Shown piece after piece: positions 1,201 to 7,406 of a stretch of 64,000 bases of DNA. Origin of the DNA: an uncultured Bacteroidales bacterium (lineage in GTDB: Bacteria; Bacteroidota; Bacteroidia; Bacteroidales; Paludibacteraceae). Position 1 is the stretch's first letter, and each line of letters begins with the position of its first letter. The DNA is taken from positions 62,001 to 126,000 of the forward strand of contig ONND01000002.1 of assembly GCA_900319105.1 (NCBI GenBank), given 5' to 3'. The translations under genes and the position numbers were made by a program. Under the pieces are notes generated by a model. The model was not told the DNA's origin. It searched no databases and saw only the letters and a list, made by a program, of their open reading frames with translations.

Positions 1201-1761
1201 CTTATTGTTGAACTGATTCATGGTTCGGTCAATGCCTTGGAGGCAGAAGGAGGGGATGATCTGGGTCGTCACTTTGAGCCGTTCGTCGATCATCTTCTTC
1301 TCCTCGTCCGTCCATTCGCCCAGCACAAAATTGATCTGTGTCCCGCGCGTGTACTCGTTTCCTATACCGAAACGCACGCGTGCGTAGGCGTCGGTACCGA
1401 TGACGGATTGGATGTTCCCCAGTCCGTTGTGGCCGCCGTTCGAGCCTTGTTTGCGGATCCGGATGGTACCGAACGGCAGGTTCAGGTCATCGACCAGCAC
1501 GAGCATGTTCTCCACGGGTATCTTCTCCTGTTGCAGCCAGTAACGCACGGCGTTGCCGGAGAGGTTCATATACGTGGAGGGTTTGAGCAGCACCATTTCG
1601 GCGTTCTTCACGCGACATTTGGCTACGAACCCGTAACGCTTGTCCTCCCACTGGGCGTTAACCGACGCAGCAAACGCATCGATCATCATGAAACCGATGT
1701 TATGCCGTGTACCGGCGTACTCATCGCCGATATTGCCAAGTCCGACTATTAAGTATTTCAT
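1198..1761 (-). CDS. pth: Peptidyl-tRNA hydrolase
   Basis: The 187-residue protein starts [20 protein letters not shown], carrying the N-terminal signature with the catalytic His near residue 20. It continues with the VDDLNLPFG and GSNGGHNGL motifs of bacterial Pth. The enzyme releases peptides from prematurely dropped peptidyl-tRNA in the cytoplasm and recycles tRNA. I chose the start at 1761 because upstream residues in the longer frame lie outside the family domain. It sits directly downstream of rplY, a common pairing in Bacteroidota. Its stop codon lies inside a heptad repeat. Confidence 0.95.
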
Positions 1762-1891
1762 ATTTGGAATAAAGACCGTTTCACTAAAAGACAAAAGACA
1801 ATGGACTGATTTACTATCGGTCGGGGCATTTCTGTCCTTAATCCTTTAGCGCAGCGGTCCATTGTCTTTCAGCGGCTATGCCGCGGTCTCA

Positions 1892-2449
1892 TTAAGCCTG
1901 TTTGCTCTGGCGTGTAGCCTTGACCTCAGCGACGCAAGCGTCAGCCGGGTTAACGAACGTCAGGCCTTCTACCTTCACGTCAGCAACAGCGATCTTCTTA
2001 CCAAGACCCAGCTCGGTAACGTCGACGTTGATGCGATCAGGGAATGCGGTGTAGATACCACAAGCTTTGAGTTTGCGCATGTTCTGAACCAACTTACCAC
2101 CGGCTTTAACACCTTCTGCAAGACCGTTCAGCAGAACGGGGATCTCTACTACTACCGGCTTCTTCTCATCTACTGCGAGGAAGTCAATATGCAGGGTCTT
2201 TCCGTCGATCGGGTGGAACTGAAGCTCCTTTACAATGGCTTTGGTCTTGGTGTCACCTACCGTCAGGTCAACGATCTGGGTGTCCGGGCTGTAGATGAGC
2301 TTACGTACATCACCGGCTGCTACCGTGAAAGTAGCGTTGATGCCACAACCATAAATGTTGCAAGGAATCAATTCCTCTGCGCGAAGAGCCTTTGCGGCTT
2401 TCTTTCCGTACTCGCTACGCGGAGTACCTACTAATGCAAATTCTTTCAT
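1892..2449 (-). CDS. rplY: 50S ribosomal protein L25/general stress protein Ctc
   Basis: The protein has 185 residues. The N-terminal L25 domain (RSEYGKKAAKALRAEELIPCNIYG, LQFHPIDGKTLHIDFLAV) binds 5S rRNA. The longer C-terminal TL5/Ctc beta domain runs from about residue 95 to the end. The length fits the long, two-domain form of L25. It lies between tRNA-Gln and pth on the same strand and may be read from the tRNA promoter, because I see no clear promoter of its own in the 135-nt gap. Confidence 0.95.
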   Translation of the reverse strand: MKEFALVGTPRSEYGKKAAKALRAEELIPCNIYGCGINATFTVAAGDVRKLIYSPDTQIVDLTVGDTKTKAIVKELQFHPIDGKTLHIDFLAVDEKKPVVVEIPVLLNGLAEGVKAGGKLVQNMRKLKACGIYTAFPDRINVDVTELGLGKKIAVADVKVEGLTFVNPADACVAEVKATRQSKQA

Positions 2450-2537
2450 TGTTAAATAAATTTGTGTTACTCAATATGGGGCAGTTAAATTCTTTTGTGA
2501 CGCTGCCCGTATCCCATCACACTTGCCTTTTTTCACA

Positions 2538-2574
2538 ATACACCCCTCCTTTTAGGGAGGGGCTTGGGGTAGGC
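2538..2574. repeat. GC-rich palindromic element (CCCCTCC..GGAGGGG), copy 1
   Basis: Hairpin with arms CCCCTCC and GGAGGGG followed by GCTTGGGGTAGGCTT, between rplY and tRNA-Gln. Near-identical copies lie inside ddl (31147-31184) and, in the other orientation, inside xseA (39169-39208). Confidence 0.75.
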
Positions 2575-2585
2575 TTCCCCTTTTG

Positions 2586-2656
2586 TTGTCCACCGAGGAG
2601 TCGAACCTCGCTTCTCGGAACCAAAATCCGGTGTAATACCGATATACGAGTGGACA
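2586..2656 (-). tRNA. tRNA-Gln(UUG)
   Basis: A cloverleaf can be drawn on the minus strand. The 7-bp acceptor stem pairs TGTCCAC with GTGGACA. There is a short D arm (GTA/TAC) and a T arm CGAGG-TTCGACT-CCTCG. The anticodon loop TTTTGGT gives anticodon UUG. One anticodon-stem pair looks like C-A in my fold. CCA is not encoded in full. A strong promoter lies 30 nt upstream (2686-2716). Confidence 0.88.
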
Positions 2657-2685
2657 TCGCATTCGCCTTTCGACGAAAAAGCGTG

Positions 2686-2716
2686 CAAAATTACTACAAT
2701 TTTTTCATATATGCAA
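2686..2716 (-). promoter_or_regulatory. Bacteroidota-type promoter for tRNA-Gln
   Basis: Reading the minus strand: -33 TTGC (2713-2716), 19-nt spacer, -7 TAATTTTG (2686-2693). It points at the tRNA and, beyond it, rplY. Confidence 0.75.
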
Positions 2717-2774
2717 ATAATTTTGCAAAAAAATGCAAGTTTTTTATTTTTTGTATAGTGTAATCTTCGAAAAT

Positions 2775-2820
2775 AAAAAATCTCAGCGCGCAAAGAGATA
2801 TCTCCGGCATGCTATGCCGG
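2775..2820 (-). terminator. Hairpins and T-run after the radical SAM gene
   Basis: Minus strand: a CCGGCAT/ATGCCGG hairpin (2804-2820), then an ATCTC...GAGAT stem followed by TTTTTT (2775-2797). This is a plausible rho-independent end for the cassette, about 70-110 nt after its last stop codon. Confidence 0.5.
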
Positions 2821-2887
2821 TTTCCCATTCTTTTACATTGTCCATTTCTCTGAATGCCGGCTTTTAAGTTGTCCATTAGCCCGAATA

Positions 2888-4000
2888 TCATTCGGGTATC
2901 TGTTCTTTTAGATTGTCTTCCTGTATCCGTTTCTCTATATGTGCAAAAATTTTCTTGTATGCCGGACAAAGGAATGTCTTGTGCTTAAAGTCTCCCGATG
3001 CAAGAAACCCGTCATGCAAACAACCGCCGTGGCAGATATGATACCATTTGCATTTGGAGCAACCGCTTTGAGCTATGTATTCTGCGCGTTTATAAGTCTC
3101 CGTTTGCTTGACACGTTGCATAATTTCTGCCAGTGGTTCATCATGCAGATTGCCGTATGAGTACTGCAGCAGGTCATTGTCGCAGAACCGTCCGCAAGGC
3201 ATCACATCGCCTGTCGGGGCAATCGCCATAAAGTTATCTTGGCAGTTGGGCGAGAACATACACCCGGATGGTTTGCCTGTGGCAATATTACTGGCTATCT
3301 CCACGAAGTTGGATTCGGTAATCTCGCCTTCTTGGTCGTTATACCAAAGGTCGAACAACTCTATCGCCATCTGTGCATATTCATCCGGCGTAATACCGTA
3401 CTCGTCTATGTTGTTCTGCGCCTCGCCGGAACAGAACAGCGGATTAAACTTGAAGCTGATTCCTTCGTCACGCATAAAGCGGTAGAGCTCAGGAATATGC
3501 CCGATATGTTTCTTGCTTCCCACTACAATGCACCCTATCCGCATTCCGCGCCCCTTACATCGGCGATAATTGGCAATAATACGCTCAAAAGTCGGCTCGC
3601 CATGTACACCTACCCGCTGCTGATTATGAATGTCTGCCGTGCCGTCCAATGAAAACCCAACCCGCACATTATATTGCAGAAAGAGGTCTATCCACTCGTC
3701 ATTGACAAGCGAAAGATTGGTCTGCATAGAGTTCTGCACTTCGTAACTAGCCAACTCTTGCTGCATATAAGCAAAAATAGCACGATAGTTGTCTATACCC
3801 CACAGCATCGGCTCTCCGCCATGCCAGATGATGGCAATTTTCTTACGCGGCTTTGCTTGCAACAATAGTTTGATTTGGTCAATAATGCGCTTGGCAAATT
3901 CCAAATCAAACAATCTCGACTGCCTTTTCGTCTCATTGCTCAAATAGCAATACTTGCACCGTAGATTGCAAGAATATGTGGGTTTGATGATGAATGTCAT
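2888..4000 (-). CDS. Radical SAM/SPASM peptide-modifying enzyme
   Basis: This 370-residue enzyme carries the radical SAM motif CNLRCKYC (Cys 11, 15, 18). A C-terminal SPASM domain supplies further Cys clusters (GCMFSPNC, CGRFC, CSKCKWYHICHGGC and a last Cys near residue 345) for auxiliary Fe-S clusters. Such enzymes modify ribosomal peptides or sulfatases by radical chemistry. It is the last gene of a tight minus-strand cassette: 8 nt after a one-TM protein, which follows two tiny Tyr/Asp-rich peptides. An anaerobic sulfatase-maturating role cannot be excluded from the domain plan alone, but no sulfatase is adjacent; the nearest starts 1.7 kb away beyond three other genes. I infer a RiPP maturase acting on the two peptides. 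The DNA is more AT-rich than the flanking housekeeping genes, consistent with transfer. Confidence 0.85.
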   Translation of the reverse strand: MTFIIKPTYSCNLRCKYCYLSNETKRQSRLFDLEFAKRIIDQIKLLLQAKPRKKIAIIWHGGEPMLWGIDNYRAIFAYMQQELASYEVQNSMQTNLSLVNDEWIDLFLQYNVRVGFSLDGTADIHNQQRVGVHGEPTFERIIANYRRCKGRGMRIGCIVVGSKKHIGHIPELYRFMRDEGISFKFNPLFCSGEAQNNIDEYGITPDEYAQMAIELFDLWYNDQEGEITESNFVEIASNIATGKPSGCMFSPNCQDNFMAIAPTGDVMPCGRFCDNDLLQYSYGNLHDEPLAEIMQRVKQTETYKRAEYIAQSGCSKCKWYHICHGGCLHDGFLASGDFKHKTFLCPAYKKIFAHIEKRIQEDNLKEQIPE

Positions 4001-4008
4001 TTTTTTAC

Positions 4009-4437
4009 CTATTCTTCATTGTTTTTCATGTTTAATATAGGAATAGTTTTCTTCACTCCTAATTTATTTTGATAAGTAATAGTAATATTTAAGCAAGCAT
4101 TGGGATCATTAAAAACTTGCTCAGTCTCCTTGGAACCGTTCAAATGAACATTGTGTTCTCCTCCTGAGTGTTTAAGGACAGGAAGAGTTAATGATGTTCT
4201 ATACAATCTTTGAATTTTATTATTTGCATCGTGATAAATATATTCAATGTAACAAATTACCTCATATGCATCAAATAATACATTTTCATTATATATTCTG
4301 ATATATTTCTTATACTTCCCATGCTGAATTTTTTTATCGGAACTGATTGTTGGCACCAAAACATAATTTAGTAGCGACCAAAATAACCATGAAGATATCA
4401 GTCCGCTGACAACACCAATTATTATTGTTGTTTGCAT
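4009..4437 (-). CDS. Small membrane-anchored protein of the radical SAM cassette
   Basis: The 142-residue protein has one N-terminal membrane helix (about residues 3-30). A polar, probably beta-rich domain follows, with many Tyr, Ile and Asn and motifs such as VLFDAYEVICYIEYIY and LNITITYQNKLG. I do not recognise the family. It sits between the peptide genes and the radical SAM gene with gaps of 20 and 8 nt, so it is surely co-transcribed. Its anchor suggests a role at the membrane in holding, exporting or sensing the modified peptide; this is inference. No protease or ABC-transporter motif is visible. Confidence 0.7.
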   Translation of the reverse strand: MQTTIIIGVVSGLISSWLFWSLLNYVLVPTISSDKKIQHGKYKKYIRIYNENVLFDAYEVICYIEYIYHDANNKIQRLYRTSLTLPVLKHSGGEHNVHLNGSKETEQVFNDPNACLNITITYQNKLGVKKTIPILNMKNNEE

Positions 4438-4457
4438 ATATCAATCTATTTTATCCA

Positions 4458-4601
4458 TTAATAATCATAATCTGCATAATCACTATGATAATCACTATAA
4501 TCATATTGATGGTCTGCAAAGTATGAAACTACTTCATAATTTTTCGATGCGATTTTATTTCTAATAATATCTTTCGCATAAGTTTGATCATTTGCTTTCA
4601 T
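4458..4601 (-). CDS. Putative RiPP precursor peptide 2, Tyr/Asp-rich C-terminus
   Basis: A 47-residue peptide running ATG (4601) to TAA (4458). The first 30 residues form a polar leader-like part starting MKANDQTYAKDIIRNKIA. The tail is YDYSDYHSDYADYDY (residues 33-47), with Y-S-D and Y-A-D triads and Tyr at seven of the fifteen positions counted through the end. It begins 11 nt after precursor 1 ends and stops 20 nt before the membrane protein. The leader differs from that of precursor 1, but the repeated Tyr-x-Asp tail is shared, as expected for two substrates of one maturase. Function is inferred from context and composition; too short for most gene finders. Confidence 0.65.
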   Translation of the reverse strand: MKANDQTYAKDIIRNKIASKNYEVVSYFADHQYDYSDYHSDYADYDY

Positions 4602-4612
4602 ATAAACAAAAA

Positions 4613-4768
4613 TTAATAAGTGTCTACATCGTAATATTTACTCATATCATTATAATCATTATAATCGGCATATTCGCCCCAGGGAAGTCCATATGCGAGA
4701 GGTTGTAATTTATGAATGACTAATCGAGAAATTGCCTTCTGGGCATGGGTTAATGTTTTTACAATCAT
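4613..4768 (-). CDS. Putative RiPP precursor peptide 1, Tyr-x-Asp repeats
   Basis: A 51-residue peptide running ATG (4768) to TAA (4613). The basic, amphipathic leader-like part starts MIVKTLTHAQKAISRLVIHK. It is followed by PLAYGLPWGE and the tail YADYNDYNDMSKYYDVDTY (residues 33-51), which holds YAD, YND, YND and YYD triads. This tail is the kind of aromatic-x-Asp/Asn pattern that SPASM enzymes forming three-residue cyclophanes act on. It is the first gene of the cassette and starts 52 nt after the FISUMP lipoprotein gene. A 9-codon frame just upstream overlaps its start as ATGA; I consider that fortuitous. Confidence 0.65.
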   Translation of the reverse strand: MIVKTLTHAQKAISRLVIHKLQPLAYGLPWGEYADYNDYNDMSKYYDVDTY

Positions 4769-4820
4769 AAAAATATAGCGATTAACCTATACATCGCGAG
4801 GTTCTAAAATTATCAGGTGA

Positions 4821-7406
4821 TTATTGATTAGTTAAATATCTACGGATCGGACGGACGCGTACAGAACTTCCCGCTGTATAACTAAAGACAGGGTTCTCAT
4901 TATACCACAACGTTTCATTAACATGCGTTATAGAATTTTGTTTCGTATAATAAACCCTCGGGTAATAACATGCATTTCCATCACTTGTCCAATACAATGC
5001 ACTTTGTTCCACACCAGATTTTTTTGCACCTGCCTTAGTATAAAACATAAAAATGCTTCCATCTTCATTATACCAACCTGTTTTAAGGTACGTCATAATA
5101 TATATGAGTTCTTCTCTCGTCGGTAAACACCAATCACTAAATCCACCATATACCAAATTCTCGCAGGCGGATTTGGCATTTCCAAATGACATCGCCCCCA
5201 TGTCAGGATATATACGGTATGTGTATCCTCCATAATATAATTTAGGTAGCGTTGTATAAGCATAAAATTCTGTTGTTATTACCACTTGATTCCCATATAC
5301 TGTCCCATTTATATTAGTGGCATAGGCTCGAATATAGTATGTAGAAGATTGAAGATTAATCCCTGTTATCGTACTAGAATAATACCCACTTCCTGTACCA
5401 TCAGAAGTTATATTATCGCTAATTGTTGGGTATGGATACGTACTCCAGCAAACACCTCGTTTTGTGATAGGAAAGCCTCCATCATCTGTTATGTTTCCGC
5501 CAGAAATTGCAGATGTTTGCGTTAAATTCTCTCCTACATCCAATGTTTCTACCATTGGCAATCCATCTTTTGTTTTATATGATTTCTGTGTACTGTAACT
5601 TGTAGAAACATCTGTAGTGGCATATGCACGGACGTAATAAGTTGTATTAGGAACTAACTTAGTCATTATACATGCATAATTGGTATTCAATTGCTTCCCG
5701 TTTGCCTCAACTATGCTATCAGTTATTGTCGGATTTGCGTCTGTTGACCAACATAATCCACAAGATTGTAGTTGAGAAGCCCCTCCTAAATTGGTTACAG
5801 ATATAAGAGAAGATGCTGATTGTGCGGTTATGTCAGTAATAGTTCCAAGCGTAACTATTGCTTTCCCATCTTTTGTTACGACATTAATAGTTTTGCCATA
5901 GGATGTTCCATTTTCATTGACAGCATAAGCCCTGACGTAATATTGGCTTTCTGGCTCTAGATTATGAATGGTGGAATTAAACACACCTATTCCTTTGCCA
6001 GTGGTTATCTTCGAGTCATCCGTAGTCGGTTGCGTGTTTTGTTGGCTATAAACAAATCCTCGTTCCGTGACATTATATCCCCATGTTTCTGTTACTTCTC
6101 CCGTTACAGCAATAGTTGTTGCCGTACTTGTGGCTTCCTTTGTTTCAACCACTGGCAGTCCGTCTCTTGTAGTGATGCTTATTTGTTGTCCGTATGATGT
6201 ACCCGTTTCATTGGTAGCATATGCACGTATATAATAGGTCATACCGATAGAAAGATTCCTAATATTTCCCTGGAAAGAACCTAATCCTTTACCTACCGTC
6301 GTATGCTCATCCTCAATAGTCGGATACTGAGATGTGGAATAGCAGAATCCTCGTGCAGTTACTGGTATATCGCAATCGGAGACAACCGTTCCAAAAGCAG
6401 TAAAACCAGTGGCTGTCACATTATTTACTGAATCCGTCTTTACTACAGCTAAACCATCCAGAGTCGTTATTATAATCTGTTCGCCATACACCGTAGCAGT
6501 GCTATTCGTAGCATAGGTACGTACATAATAGGTGGTGTTTTCTAATAAGCTACTCAGCGTACTGGTAAACTCACCTTTCCCCGAGCCGTCATTCGTACAC
6601 TCGTCATCTATCGTAGGATCCGGTTGACGACTCCAACAGGTTCCTTTCTTCGTTACGGCATAACCGCCGTCACTTTCTACATGGCCTTTGCATTTTGCAC
6701 TATGAGCAGTAATCCGATAAACCGAATCACTAATCACAATAGGTACACCAAGCTCCGTAGTAAACTTCACTTGATCGCCATAGGCTGTACCTTTCTTATT
6801 GGTAGCATACGCGCGTGCATAATAAATGGTATTATGTTCCAGATTTTTCAAGGTAGTAGTGAAAGTTCCTAATCCACCACCGTCTGTGGTGTGCGTTCCA
6901 TCTACGGTTGGTTGCTGCTCCGTACCATAACATATACCGCGAGCAGTAACAGCCATACGACCATCCGTCATTACCTCACCGCCTAAAGTAGCGCCATCTG
7001 CTGTTACTTCTGTTAATGGCGTTGTCTTTATAGTCGGCAATGCCGGGCCTTCCACCTCTATGACTCCAAGATCCACTTCGGCTTGACCATAACCTCCCAA
7101 AGACACTTTCTTCGGTACGCAGGTCTCGTCTCCTGCTAATAGATAATAACTGCCGTCTATCTCATTGACACGTACCTTCAGAGAGAAATTACCTCCCCCA
7201 TCCGTCTGAGTCTGGCAATGAGTATCCTTCCCGTTCGTTACTTTGACCGTCAAGTCCGAAAAAGGTGTGGTGGTATTGATATACACCACTTGACCACGGT
7301 AATTGACTACATCATTCATATCGTCTTTATTACAAGCGATGAAGAATGTACTAATCGTTACTAACAAGGTGGCTACGAGGCCAAACCATGTGAATCTTGC
7401 TTTCAT
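4821..7406 (-). CDS. Surface lipoprotein with six repeats and a FISUMP-like C-terminal domain
   Basis: The 861-residue protein has a lipoprotein signal ending in FFIACNKDD. A short carboxypeptidase-regulatory-like domain follows (residues about 35-110). Then come six repeats of about 95 residues, each with the pattern 'TARGxCxS..P..T....T.DG.G.G.F...L..L...TYYxRAYATN..GT.YG....TT.DG' (about 125-710). The last 150 residues (KSACENLVYGGFSDWCLPTREELIYI) match the FISUMP/DUF1566 type found on Bacteroidota and Fibrobacter surfaces. Its role is likely outer-surface binding or scaffolding; the ligand is unknown. It lies 13 nt after an LPP20-like gene and 52 nt before the peptide cassette, so all may form one operon. 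Confidence 0.8.
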   Translation of the reverse strand: MKARFTWFGLVATLLVTISTFFIACNKDDMNDVVNYRGQVVYINTTTPFSDLTVKVTNGKDTHCQTQTDGGGNFSLKVRVNEIDGSYYLLAGDETCVPKKVSLGGYGQAEVDLGVIEVEGPALPTIKTTPLTEVTADGATLGGEVMTDGRMAVTARGICYGTEQQPTVDGTHTTDGGGLGTFTTTLKNLEHNTIYYARAYATNKKGTAYGDQVKFTTELGVPIVISDSVYRITAHSAKCKGHVESDGGYAVTKKGTCWSRQPDPTIDDECTNDGSGKGEFTSTLSSLLENTTYYVRTYATNSTATVYGEQIIITTLDGLAVVKTDSVNNVTATGFTAFGTVVSDCDIPVTARGFCYSTSQYPTIEDEHTTVGKGLGSFQGNIRNLSIGMTYYIRAYATNETGTSYGQQISITTRDGLPVVETKEATSTATTIAVTGEVTETWGYNVTERGFVYSQQNTQPTTDDSKITTGKGIGVFNSTIHNLEPESQYYVRAYAVNENGTSYGKTINVVTKDGKAIVTLGTITDITAQSASSLISVTNLGGASQLQSCGLCWSTDANPTITDSIVEANGKQLNTNYACIMTKLVPNTTYYVRAYATTDVSTSYSTQKSYKTKDGLPMVETLDVGENLTQTSAISGGNITDDGGFPITKRGVCWSTYPYPTISDNITSDGTGSGYYSSTITGINLQSSTYYIRAYATNINGTVYGNQVVITTEFYAYTTLPKLYYGGYTYRIYPDMGAMSFGNAKSACENLVYGGFSDWCLPTREELIYIMTYLKTGWYNEDGSIFMFYTKAGAKKSGVEQSALYWTSDGNACYYPRVYYTKQNSITHVNETLWYNENPVFSYTAGSSVRVRPIRRYLTNQ

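What the first reader, a model, noticed from the sequence alone, without database searches (positions are those of the whole stretch)
2888..4768. Uncharacterised RiPP-like cassette: two Tyr-x-Asp-rich micro-peptides, a one-TM protein and a SPASM radical SAM enzyme
Read directly: two minus-strand frames of 51 and 47 aa (4768-4613, 4601-4458) have different leader-like halves but both end in Tyr-x-Asp repeats (tails YADYNDYNDMSKYYDVDTY and YDYSDYHSDYADYDY). They are followed after 20 nt by a membrane-anchored protein and after 8 nt more by a radical SAM/SPASM enzyme (CNLRCKYC; CSKCKWYHICHGGC). Known: SPASM enzymes mature ribosomal peptides, and one group forms three-residue cyclophanes on aromatic-x-Asp/Asn/Lys triads (triceptides). 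Inference: Tyr side chains are joined to the following Asp at up to four sites per peptide. No protease or transporter is encoded, so export and leader removal would need host factors. The neighbouring surface lipoproteins may be part of the same system.
Basis: partly seen in the sequence, partly recalled or inferred. Interest (0 to 1): 0.85.

Follow-up and report, generated by a model that had tools for sequence, protein, structure and literature searches.

The report
Swappable tyrosine-aspartate peptide maturation cassette
Uncultured Bacteroidales carry a small gene cassette in which a radical enzyme probably cross-links tiny tyrosine- and aspartate-rich peptides, and related genomes carry different peptide-plus-membrane-protein pairs beside nearly the same enzyme.

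Summary
On the minus strand lie two short peptide genes, a one-TM protein and a 370-aa radical SAM/SPASM enzyme. The peptides are under purifying selection and, contrary to the finding, share a leader motif. I found 21 distinct cassettes, one more of them in the same genome (enzymes 42-98% identical to the window's); 21 of 21 have a precursor beside the enzyme and 18 of 21 a TM protein of 137 aa or more. In 23 cores, 105 of 136 Asp have Tyr (71), His (19) or Phe (15) two residues before (40 expected). The motif is thus aromatic-x-Asp, which fits a three-residue-cyclophane (triceptide) enzyme; Tyr-x-Asp cyclophanes have a precedent (YxdB). The enzyme is nearest the dynobactin maturase model but below its cut-off, and does not look like a sulfatase maturase. 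What looks new: the core and TM gene are replaced between similar flanks, and their types covary independently of the enzyme (partial Mantel p 0.002; 0.016 in the strictest subset). I infer a cognate peptide/partner pair, perhaps toxin-immunity. Cross-link, export, protease and function are untested.

The parts
4613..4768 (-). Precursor peptide A, 51 aa: leader MIVKTLTHAQKAISRLVIHK..., core with YAD, YND, YND, YYD
   Evidence: dN/dS 0.10 against L014
4458..4601 (-). Precursor peptide B, 47 aa: leader ...TYAKDIIRNKIASK..., core with FAD, YSD, HSD, YAD
   Evidence: dN/dS 0.33 against L014
4009..4437 (-). One-TM protein, 142 aa, TM about residues 5-23, predicted N-out/C-in (soluble domain cytoplasmic); inferred cognate partner of the peptide
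   Evidence: Hydropathy and flank charges; this protein has no match in Pfam, NCBIfam, PHROGs or PADLOC at the limits used; TM type covaries with core
2888..4000 (-). Radical SAM/SPASM peptide maturase, 370 aa: CNLRCKYC cluster plus eight SPASM Cys (C247, C253, C269, C314, C317, C323, C327, C345)
   Evidence: Pfam Radical_SAM and SPASM over cut-off; NCBIfam best NF041298 304 bits, cut-off 450; these Cys invariant in 14 aligned enzymes
4766..4803 (-). Conserved element ending at the start codon of peptide A, ACCTCGCGATGTATAGGTTAATCGC..., with a GCGAT/ATCGC inverted repeat
   Evidence: 7 loci aligned; one pair changed on both sides in L010 and L015, covariation reached by 24 of 500 shuffles; single copy in the own genome at up to 3 mismatches; no credible Rfam match
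4821..7406 (-). Neighbouring lipoprotein-like protein, 861 aa, FN3-like repeats and a sub-threshold Lcl_C match at the C-terminus; frequent upstream neighbour, not obligate
   Evidence: fn3 34.0 bits, cut-off 25; Lcl_C 28.3, cut-off 34.9; relatives in 10 of 14 other distinct loci tested

Best explanation
It is a RiPP cassette. The enzyme recognises the shared leader and, by radical SAM chemistry, joins the ring of each aromatic residue (Tyr, also His and Phe) to the beta-carbon of the Asp two residues later, giving three to six three-residue cyclophanes per core (four in each window peptide). The core and the one-TM protein form a cognate pair that is replaced between similar flanks (upstream sequence plus leader on one side, maturase on the other). 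The most likely reason is that the product is an antagonistic or recognition peptide and the TM protein, its soluble domain on the cytoplasmic side, protects against it or handles it specifically. Shown by sequence: real genes, constant peptide-enzyme pairing, aromatic-x-Asp register, a different history of the interior, covariation of core and TM protein. Inferred: cross-link type, immunity or handling role, and leader removal and export by factors outside the cassette.
For: Pairing: 21 of 21 distinct cassettes have a precursor beside the enzyme, 18 of 21 a TM protein of 137-239 aa. In 178 congeneric genomes enzyme, strong precursor and strong TM matches all fall in the same 6 genomes. Register: of 136 core Asp, 105 have Y/H/F at -2 (40.4+-4.8 in shuffles, 0 of 5000); for His and for Phe, +2 is the strongest offset of Asp; after reduction to 11 unlike cores 49 of 67 (19.9 expected, 0 of 10000), and 43 of 61 (18.6 expected, 0 of 10000) with everything up to the first FxD removed. 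Enzyme: profile relatives include DynA, TIGR04083, DarW/DarE, YhhB, AmcB, PapB and GrrM/OscB peptide maturases. Exchange: L011 and L012 are 91% identical over 3.4 kb upstream and 95% in the enzyme, with no blastn match shown across the rest of the core and the TM gene; likewise L013/L014, L012/L023 and window/L008; L011/L012 dS is 0.22 in the enzyme and 2.3 in the TM gene. Covariation: 17 cassettes, TM-core Spearman 0.34, partial given the enzyme 0.34, p 0.0020; TM-enzyme 0.06, p 0.26. Chemistry precedent: YxdB forms C3(Tyr)-Cbeta(Asp) (PMC11002830).
Against: No mass or structural data. Cores are low-complexity D-Y-x-D arrays: Asp directly before Tyr (67, z 8.8) and at -4 (43, z 4.4) is enriched too, so the repeat alone does not single out +2 for Tyr; the His and Phe register is the cleaner evidence, and after removing the first FxD it weakens (9 against 4.6, 42 of 2000). 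The 17-cassette covariation falls to 0.27, p 0.016 when L014 (same allele as the window) and the two cassettes with broken enzymes are left out, and best-TM and best-core partner agree in 9 of 17. L027 and L099 have no TM protein and L026 only 72 aa, against an obligate immunity role. The four two-precursor cassettes carry one TM protein each. Enzyme frames of L024 and L094 are broken. The enzyme passes no curated cyclophane-maturase cut-off. No transporter or protease was recognised.
Confidence: 0.58

Rival explanations
1. RiPP cassette, but with other radical chemistry than three-residue cyclophanes: for example a dynobactin/darobactin-like mix (C-C over four residues, C-N or ether bonds) or modification of Asp or Tyr without rings.
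For: Nearest family model is the dynobactin maturase (304 bits), with DarW and DarE at 173 and 166, ahead of the cyclophane models YhhB (147) and AmcB (143). Dynobactin has an i,i+3 C-C and an i,i+2 C-N link (PMC11002830, passages).
Against: Asp follows Tyr, His and Phe at +2; for Tyr, +3 is depleted (11 against 26.4, z -3.6).
Confidence: 0.25
2. The TM protein is a dedicated handling, docking or export partner of the precursor rather than immunity; the core/TM covariation then reflects substrate binding.
For: Soluble domain predicted cytoplasmic, where the unexported precursor is; gene lies between precursor and enzyme; no transporter recognised in the cassette.
Against: The TM protein diverges far more than the enzyme: window/L008 41% against 98%, window/L013 14% against 91%, which is more usual for specificity or immunity genes; absent in L027 and L099.
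Confidence: 0.4
3. The enzyme is an anaerobic sulfatase maturase and the small ORFs are incidental.
For: The sulfatase-maturase model is second best (238 bits), and anaerobic sulfatase-maturating enzymes are the nearest solved structures.
Against: Below that model's cut-off (349). The Asp after the SPASM Cys in 4k36 (PCDFYV; recalled as the catalytic Asp277) is Gly in all 14 aligned enzymes (PCGRF). Of the six PF00884 proteins of the own genome five have no [CS]-x-[PA]-[ST]-R at all and one has SQPSR in what I read as a linker before the catalytic part; by eye they look like membrane phosphotransferases. A precursor is always next door. The genome is only 91% complete.
Confidence: 0.02
4. The small ORFs are unmodified acidic peptides (metal or calcium binding) or regulatory leader peptides, and the enzyme acts elsewhere.
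For: Cores are rich in Asp, and a conserved hairpin-like element precedes the first peptide in 7 loci.
Against: Shared N-terminal leader, constant linkage to a SPASM enzyme, and aromatic-x-Asp register including His and Phe.
Confidence: 0.06

Closest known systems
Triceptides / three-residue cyclophane forming enzymes, in particular YxdB (Tyr-x-Asp) and HaaB/YhhB (His)
   Same: SPASM radical SAM enzyme beside a small precursor with aromatic-x-acceptor triads; YxdB links C3(Tyr) to Cbeta(Asp) (PMC11002830, passages read).
   Different: Cross-link not shown here. Here Tyr, His and Phe triads are mixed in one core, the leader is of the TxAQxxIxxRIxxK type, and core and TM gene are exchanged between similar flanks.
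Dynobactin maturase (NCBIfam NF041298)
   Same: Best family match along the whole enzyme; 14 of 14 aligned members match at E<=1e-30.
   Different: 304 bits against a cut-off of 450 for the window enzyme; cores are arrays of aromatic-x-Asp triads, unlike the two links described for dynobactin.
Anaerobic sulfatase-maturating enzyme (4k36/4k37)
   Same: Nearest solved structures by sequence; all eight SPASM cysteines align.
   Different: Below the family cut-off; Asp after the SPASM Cys replaced by Gly; no canonical substrate seen in the own genome.
Bacteroidales RiPP clusters mined with BAGEL4 (PMC10352776)
   Same: Same order; radical SAM the commonest RiPP enzyme there (outline, abstract and search passages seen; not read whole).
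   Different: Their nine examined clusters pair GG-motif leaders with peptidase-containing transporters (abstract); no GG in any of the 25 precursors here and no transporter recognised. Their set held 2 Paludibacteraceae genomes, with no radical SAM area.

Membership tests
Triceptide (three-residue cyclophane RiPP) | Radical SAM/SPASM maturase beside the precursor gene | tested here: met
   Domains for the window enzyme; precursor beside the enzyme in 21 of 21 distinct cassettes
Triceptide (three-residue cyclophane RiPP) | Precursor core with aromatic-x-acceptor triads | tested here: met
   105 of 136 core Asp in 23 precursors have Y/H/F at -2
Triceptide (three-residue cyclophane RiPP) | C-C bond between aromatic ring and Cbeta at i,i+2 | not testable with these tools
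   Needs MS/MS and NMR
Triceptide (three-residue cyclophane RiPP) | Enzyme passes one of the curated cyclophane-maturase models listed (YhhB, AmcB, GrrM/OscB, XyeB, FxsB) | tested here: not met
   All below cut-off: YhhB 146.6/445, AmcB 142.5/425, GrrM/OscB 126.8/310, XyeB 100.3/450, FxsB 91.6/370 (best 25 of 81 families shown). So no known triceptide subfamily is claimed
Dynobactin maturase NF041298 | Score over the curated cut-off | tested here: not met
   304.1 against 450 bits
Anaerobic sulfatase maturase TIGR03942 | Score over the curated cut-off | tested here: not met
   237.8 against 349.45 bits
Anaerobic sulfatase maturase TIGR03942 | Asp after the third SPASM Cys (recalled as catalytic) | tested here: not met
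   Gly270 in all 14 enzymes of A3
RiPP cassette in general | Conserved leader, variable core, modifying enzyme | tested here: met
   Leader columns T7, A9, I13 invariant and K20 at least 90% in 17 precursors; variable cores
GG-leader RiPP with peptidase transporter | Double-Gly leader end and PCAT gene | tested here: not met
   No Gly-Gly in any of 25 precursors; no transporter among the cassette genes (read by eye, and the family scans)

The most novel reading that the evidence does not exclude
A polymorphic RiPP locus: one conserved maturase and leader process many alternative cores, and each core travels with its own membrane-anchored partner as a replaceable allele at the same chromosomal address, like toxin-immunity or kin-recognition alleles. 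One enzyme would make Tyr-, His- and Phe-x-Asp cyclophanes in the same multi-ring peptide, so it would be a natural sequence-tolerant macrocyclisation tool.
Probability: 0.43. Interest if true: 0.78.

Novelty: new variant of a known kind. Interest (0 to 1): 0.64.

Why it matters
If true, it adds an uncharacterised family of multi-ring peptides from uncultured Bacteroidales, many of them from ruminants, with a maturase family that is paired with at least 11 unlike cores. It also gives a directly testable case of allele exchange in which a modified peptide and its membrane partner are replaced while the enzyme stays, which would say what the peptide is for.

Tried and rejected
Sulfatase maturase: rejected on the cut-off, the missing Asp and the lack of canonical substrates seen. 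Plasmid gene: no relative in the plasmid collection at E<=1e-40. The lipoprotein as an obligate part: dropped, because tblastn finds none in L024, L025, L026 and L027 (4 of 14 distinct loci tested); L093, L094, L098, L099 and L100 were not tested that way. TM protein identity: Pfam gave 8 single-member hits of 13 members, best E 0.05; the PDB profile search one hit at E 3.8; PHROGs single-member hits, best E 0.0003 to a holin family; PADLOC none for the four TM proteins scanned. The PADLOC viperin match of the enzyme (E 2e-13) I take as general radical SAM similarity. Rfam: one match at E 0.95, far below its gathering score. Literature: terms such as 'YXD motif' and 'Tyr-x-Asp' are in 38 papers; the 25 listed look unrelated by title and abstract start. 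Of nine papers listed for YxdB/YxdA only the review PMC11002830 concerns the enzyme, judged by title; the original report (Sugiyama 2022, seen in that review's reference list) was not read. A search on the catalytic Asp of sulfatase maturases gave listings only, none opened. L028 (34% identity) starts close to a contig end, so its precursor could not be looked for. Four of the 15 phage records with relatives of the L075 enzyme (H1, H2, H3, H5) showed no small ORF with more than two aromatic-x-acidic triads.
Full report
OBSERVATION. What the finding describes is at the stated coordinates. The host genome (G000, 2.26 Mb, 30 contigs, 90.8% complete) is unnamed. The eight named relatives are Bacteroidales MAGs (three titled Paludibacteraceae, one Salinivirgaceae), and at least five titles name a ruminant. 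The two peptides are genes, not chance frames: between the window and L014, peptide A has 4.0 nonsynonymous and 10.0 synonymous differences (dN/dS 0.10), peptide B 0.33, enzyme 0.05.

MORE CASSETTES. The own genome has a second cassette with an enzyme 93% identical (L002, wider L030). One scan of genome contigs gave 8 loci. Genome searches found the enzyme in 6 of 178 congeneric genomes (E<=1e-40), 5 of 300 of the family sample (1e-60), 6 of 393 of the order sample (1e-60), 1 of 395 of the class sample, the own genome (1e-70), and 5 of 129, 1 of 9 and 4 of 217 in the families of three distant carriers (1e-80). These counts include the carriers already known, and samples overlap. Duplicates, told by equal contig length and sequence, were merged (L004=L008, L005=L013=L032, L006=L009, L007=L010=L031, L016=L014=L029, L091=L011, L002=L030; L017, L018, L019, L020, L022 are the shorter forms of L023, L025, L026, L027, L024). 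That leaves 21 distinct cassettes. One further relative (34%, L021/L028) lies at a contig end and was not counted.

ANATOMY. 21 of 21 have one or two precursors (25 in all; two in the window, L013, L014 and L093) before the TM gene or the enzyme. 18 of 21 have a TM protein of 137-239 aa (L094's, 155 aa, is shorter than its nearest relative's 221); L026 has 72 aa, and L027 and L099 have no room for one. The leader motif is T-x-A-[QK]-x-x-I-x-x-[RK]-I-x-x-K; T, A and I are invariant in the 17 precursors aligned, but L027 and L098, not in that alignment, deviate (NYAHFAI, SYALQTI). In 178 congeneric genomes the precursor profile gives 10 matches at E<=9.2e-13 and the TM profile 7 at E<=2.1e-34, all in the same 6 genomes that have the enzyme. 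The profiles contain these sequences, so the information lies in the absence elsewhere. The 37 weaker precursor places (E 1.4e-4 to 0.01) all begin at profile position 13 or later, after the TxA motif, and were not examined one by one; two weak TM matches (G295, G290) likewise.

THE TRIADS. In 17 precursors (L027 left out) Tyr has Asp at +2 in 51 cases (19.5 expected) and at -1 in 52 (20.1 expected), with weaker peaks at -4 and +5: the unit is D-Y-x-D in tandem. With 23 precursors (25 less L092, a near copy of L012, and distant L027), 136 core Asp have at -2: Tyr 71, His 19, Phe 15, Trp 0, anything else or nothing 31; aromatic total 105 against 40.4+-4.8. His has Asp at +2 in 19 (5.9 expected, z 6.3) and at -2 in 11 (5.8 expected, z 2.4); Phe at +2 in 15 (5.5 expected, z 4.7); their other offsets are near or below expectation. 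Because relatives are not independent I reduced to 11 unlike cores: 49 of 67 Asp have an aromatic at -2 (19.9 expected, 0 of 10000) and His/Phe have Asp at +2 in 15 (6.1 expected, 0 of 2000); with everything up to the first FxD removed, 43 of 61 (18.6 expected, 0 of 10000) and 9 (4.6 expected, 42 of 2000). 24 of 25 precursors have three to six triads, L027 one. The core string YNDCHGDYYD recurs in L008, L024, L025, L026, L094, L098 and L100, whose enzymes are 52-98% identical to the window's.

THE ENZYME. Pfam Radical_SAM and SPASM are over cut-off. Of NCBIfam, NF041298 (dynobactin maturase) is best, 304 bits against 450, then TIGR03942 (sulfatase maturase), 238 against 349, and TIGR04083, 198 against 300; no model shown is passed. 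14 of 14 aligned enzymes match the first two at E<=1e-30. Eight SPASM cysteines align with those of 4k36, but 4k36's Asp (PCDFYV) is Gly (PCGRF). That this Asp is the catalytic Asp277 is recalled, not from a call. The own genome gave three matches: the two cassette enzymes and a weak one (E 1.8e-4) in another protein. Its six PF00884 proteins look to me like membrane phosphotransferases of LtaS/EptA kind (recalled family features).

EXCHANGE OF THE INTERIOR. blastn between pairs (short and off-diagonal pieces filtered out). L011/L012: 91% over 3.4 kb upstream, a block reaching into the leader (5193-5378 of L011, 85%), nothing across the rest of the core and the TM gene, then 95% in the enzyme. 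L013/L014: 87% from 1437 to 5064 (into the leader), nothing until the enzyme at 6001, then 84%. L012/L023: 98% over 2.2 kb, then 84% and short blocks up to the leader, enzyme 89%. Window/L008: 97% over 61 bases ending in the leader, nothing, then 91% from the enzyme start. Two pairs are of the same allele and align throughout: window/L014 (85%) and L012/L092 (93%, with upstream genes only 75-83% alike). dS for L011/L012 is 0.22 (enzyme), 0.58 (precursor) and 2.3 (TM gene); for window/L008 0.46, 1.0 and 1.5 (values above 1 are rough). So the interior has another history than the flanks. In the 11 cassettes nearest the window's (itself included) the interior has 28.8-32.5% G+C, the enzyme 43.1-49.5%.

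COVARIATION. Over 17 cassettes (21 less L026, L027, L092, L099) TM similarity follows core similarity (Spearman 0.34, permutation p 0.0020; partial given enzyme identity 0.34, p 0.0020) and not enzyme identity (0.06, p 0.26); core against enzyme -0.04 (p 0.57) (a first run with 13 gave partial 0.36, p 0.006). Robustness: all 17 again, p 0.0012; without L014 0.35, p 0.0010; without L024 and L094 (broken enzymes) 0.26, p 0.011; without all three 0.27, p 0.016. The clearest case: L030 and L011 share core and TM type with enzymes 80% identical, while L030 and the window have enzymes 93% identical with unlike core and TM protein. Best-TM and best-core partner agree in 9 of 17. The TM segment is near the N-terminus, with more Lys+Arg in the 20 residues after it than in the stretch before it in 19 of 19 proteins examined, but acidic residues are as many or more there in 7 of 19, so the cytoplasmic side of the soluble domain is an inference of moderate strength.

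MECHANISM. Leader-guided radical cyclisation at aromatic-x-Asp is the best-supported step; the chemistry precedent is YxdB, C3(Tyr)-Cbeta(Asp), and HaaB and YhhB for His (PMC11002830, passages read). The TM protein as cognate partner is supported by covariation; immunity versus handling is open. Export and leader cleavage are unassigned; no Gly-Gly is present in any precursor.

WHAT IS NEW. Tyr-x-Asp cyclophanes as such are not new. In the listings of the searches made, judged by title and abstract start, I saw no description of this family, its leader, its TM partner or the exchange. Most subscription papers are not in that library, and the original YxdB report and the radical SAM RiPP atlas (both seen only in reference lists) were not read, so novelty is provisional.

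Noticed in passing
window 4766-4803 (-) and L008, L009, L010, L013, L014, L015: A conserved element ends at the first precursor's start codon: ACCT...AGGT and GCGAT...ATCGC, which could overlap as a small pseudoknot; one pair changes on both sides in L010 and L015. L011, L012 and L024 have other, longer inverted repeats in the same gap (by eye). Hairpin, terminator and operator cannot be told apart.
   Followed up: partly
L075:4844-4981 (+), enzyme from 4953/4983 to 6101: A viral contig holds a 45-aa peptide with GDYPEYGEYSEYLDYHDYSD directly before a SPASM-type enzyme 27% identical to the window's, next to genes I read as holin and amidase. Small ORFs beside the other six viral loci showed nothing alike; a scan with this enzyme found only the contig itself.
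   Followed up: partly
L099:5268-6029 (+): The TM-less cassette of L099 is followed by an AbiGi-family gene (Pfam PF10899, E 2.3e-34).
   Followed up: no
L025:7507-8981 (-), L100:5946-6869 (-): In distant carriers the genes before the precursor resemble CsgG (three proteins: one just over the Pfam cut-off at 21.3 bits, two below), a possible link to outer-membrane export.
   Followed up: no
window 4821-7406 (-), L030, L009: The FN3-repeat lipoprotein (signal ...FIAC, then NKDD, which resembles a surface-export signal, recalled) belongs to a family of varying repeat number; L030 and L009 give full-length-like matches at two places.
   Followed up: partly
L002:628-1405 (-): Downstream of the second cassette lie frames that look like an N-terminal piece of UvrB running into an FGE-like sequence (my reading): rearrangement or assembly fault.
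   Followed up: no
L024 and L094 enzymes: Two of 21 enzymes have broken 5' reading frames while the precursor stays open: decay or sequencing error.
   Followed up: no
L013:5026-6004 (+) and L093: Order precursor - TM protein - second precursor - enzyme, so the second precursor has no TM gene of its own.
   Followed up: no
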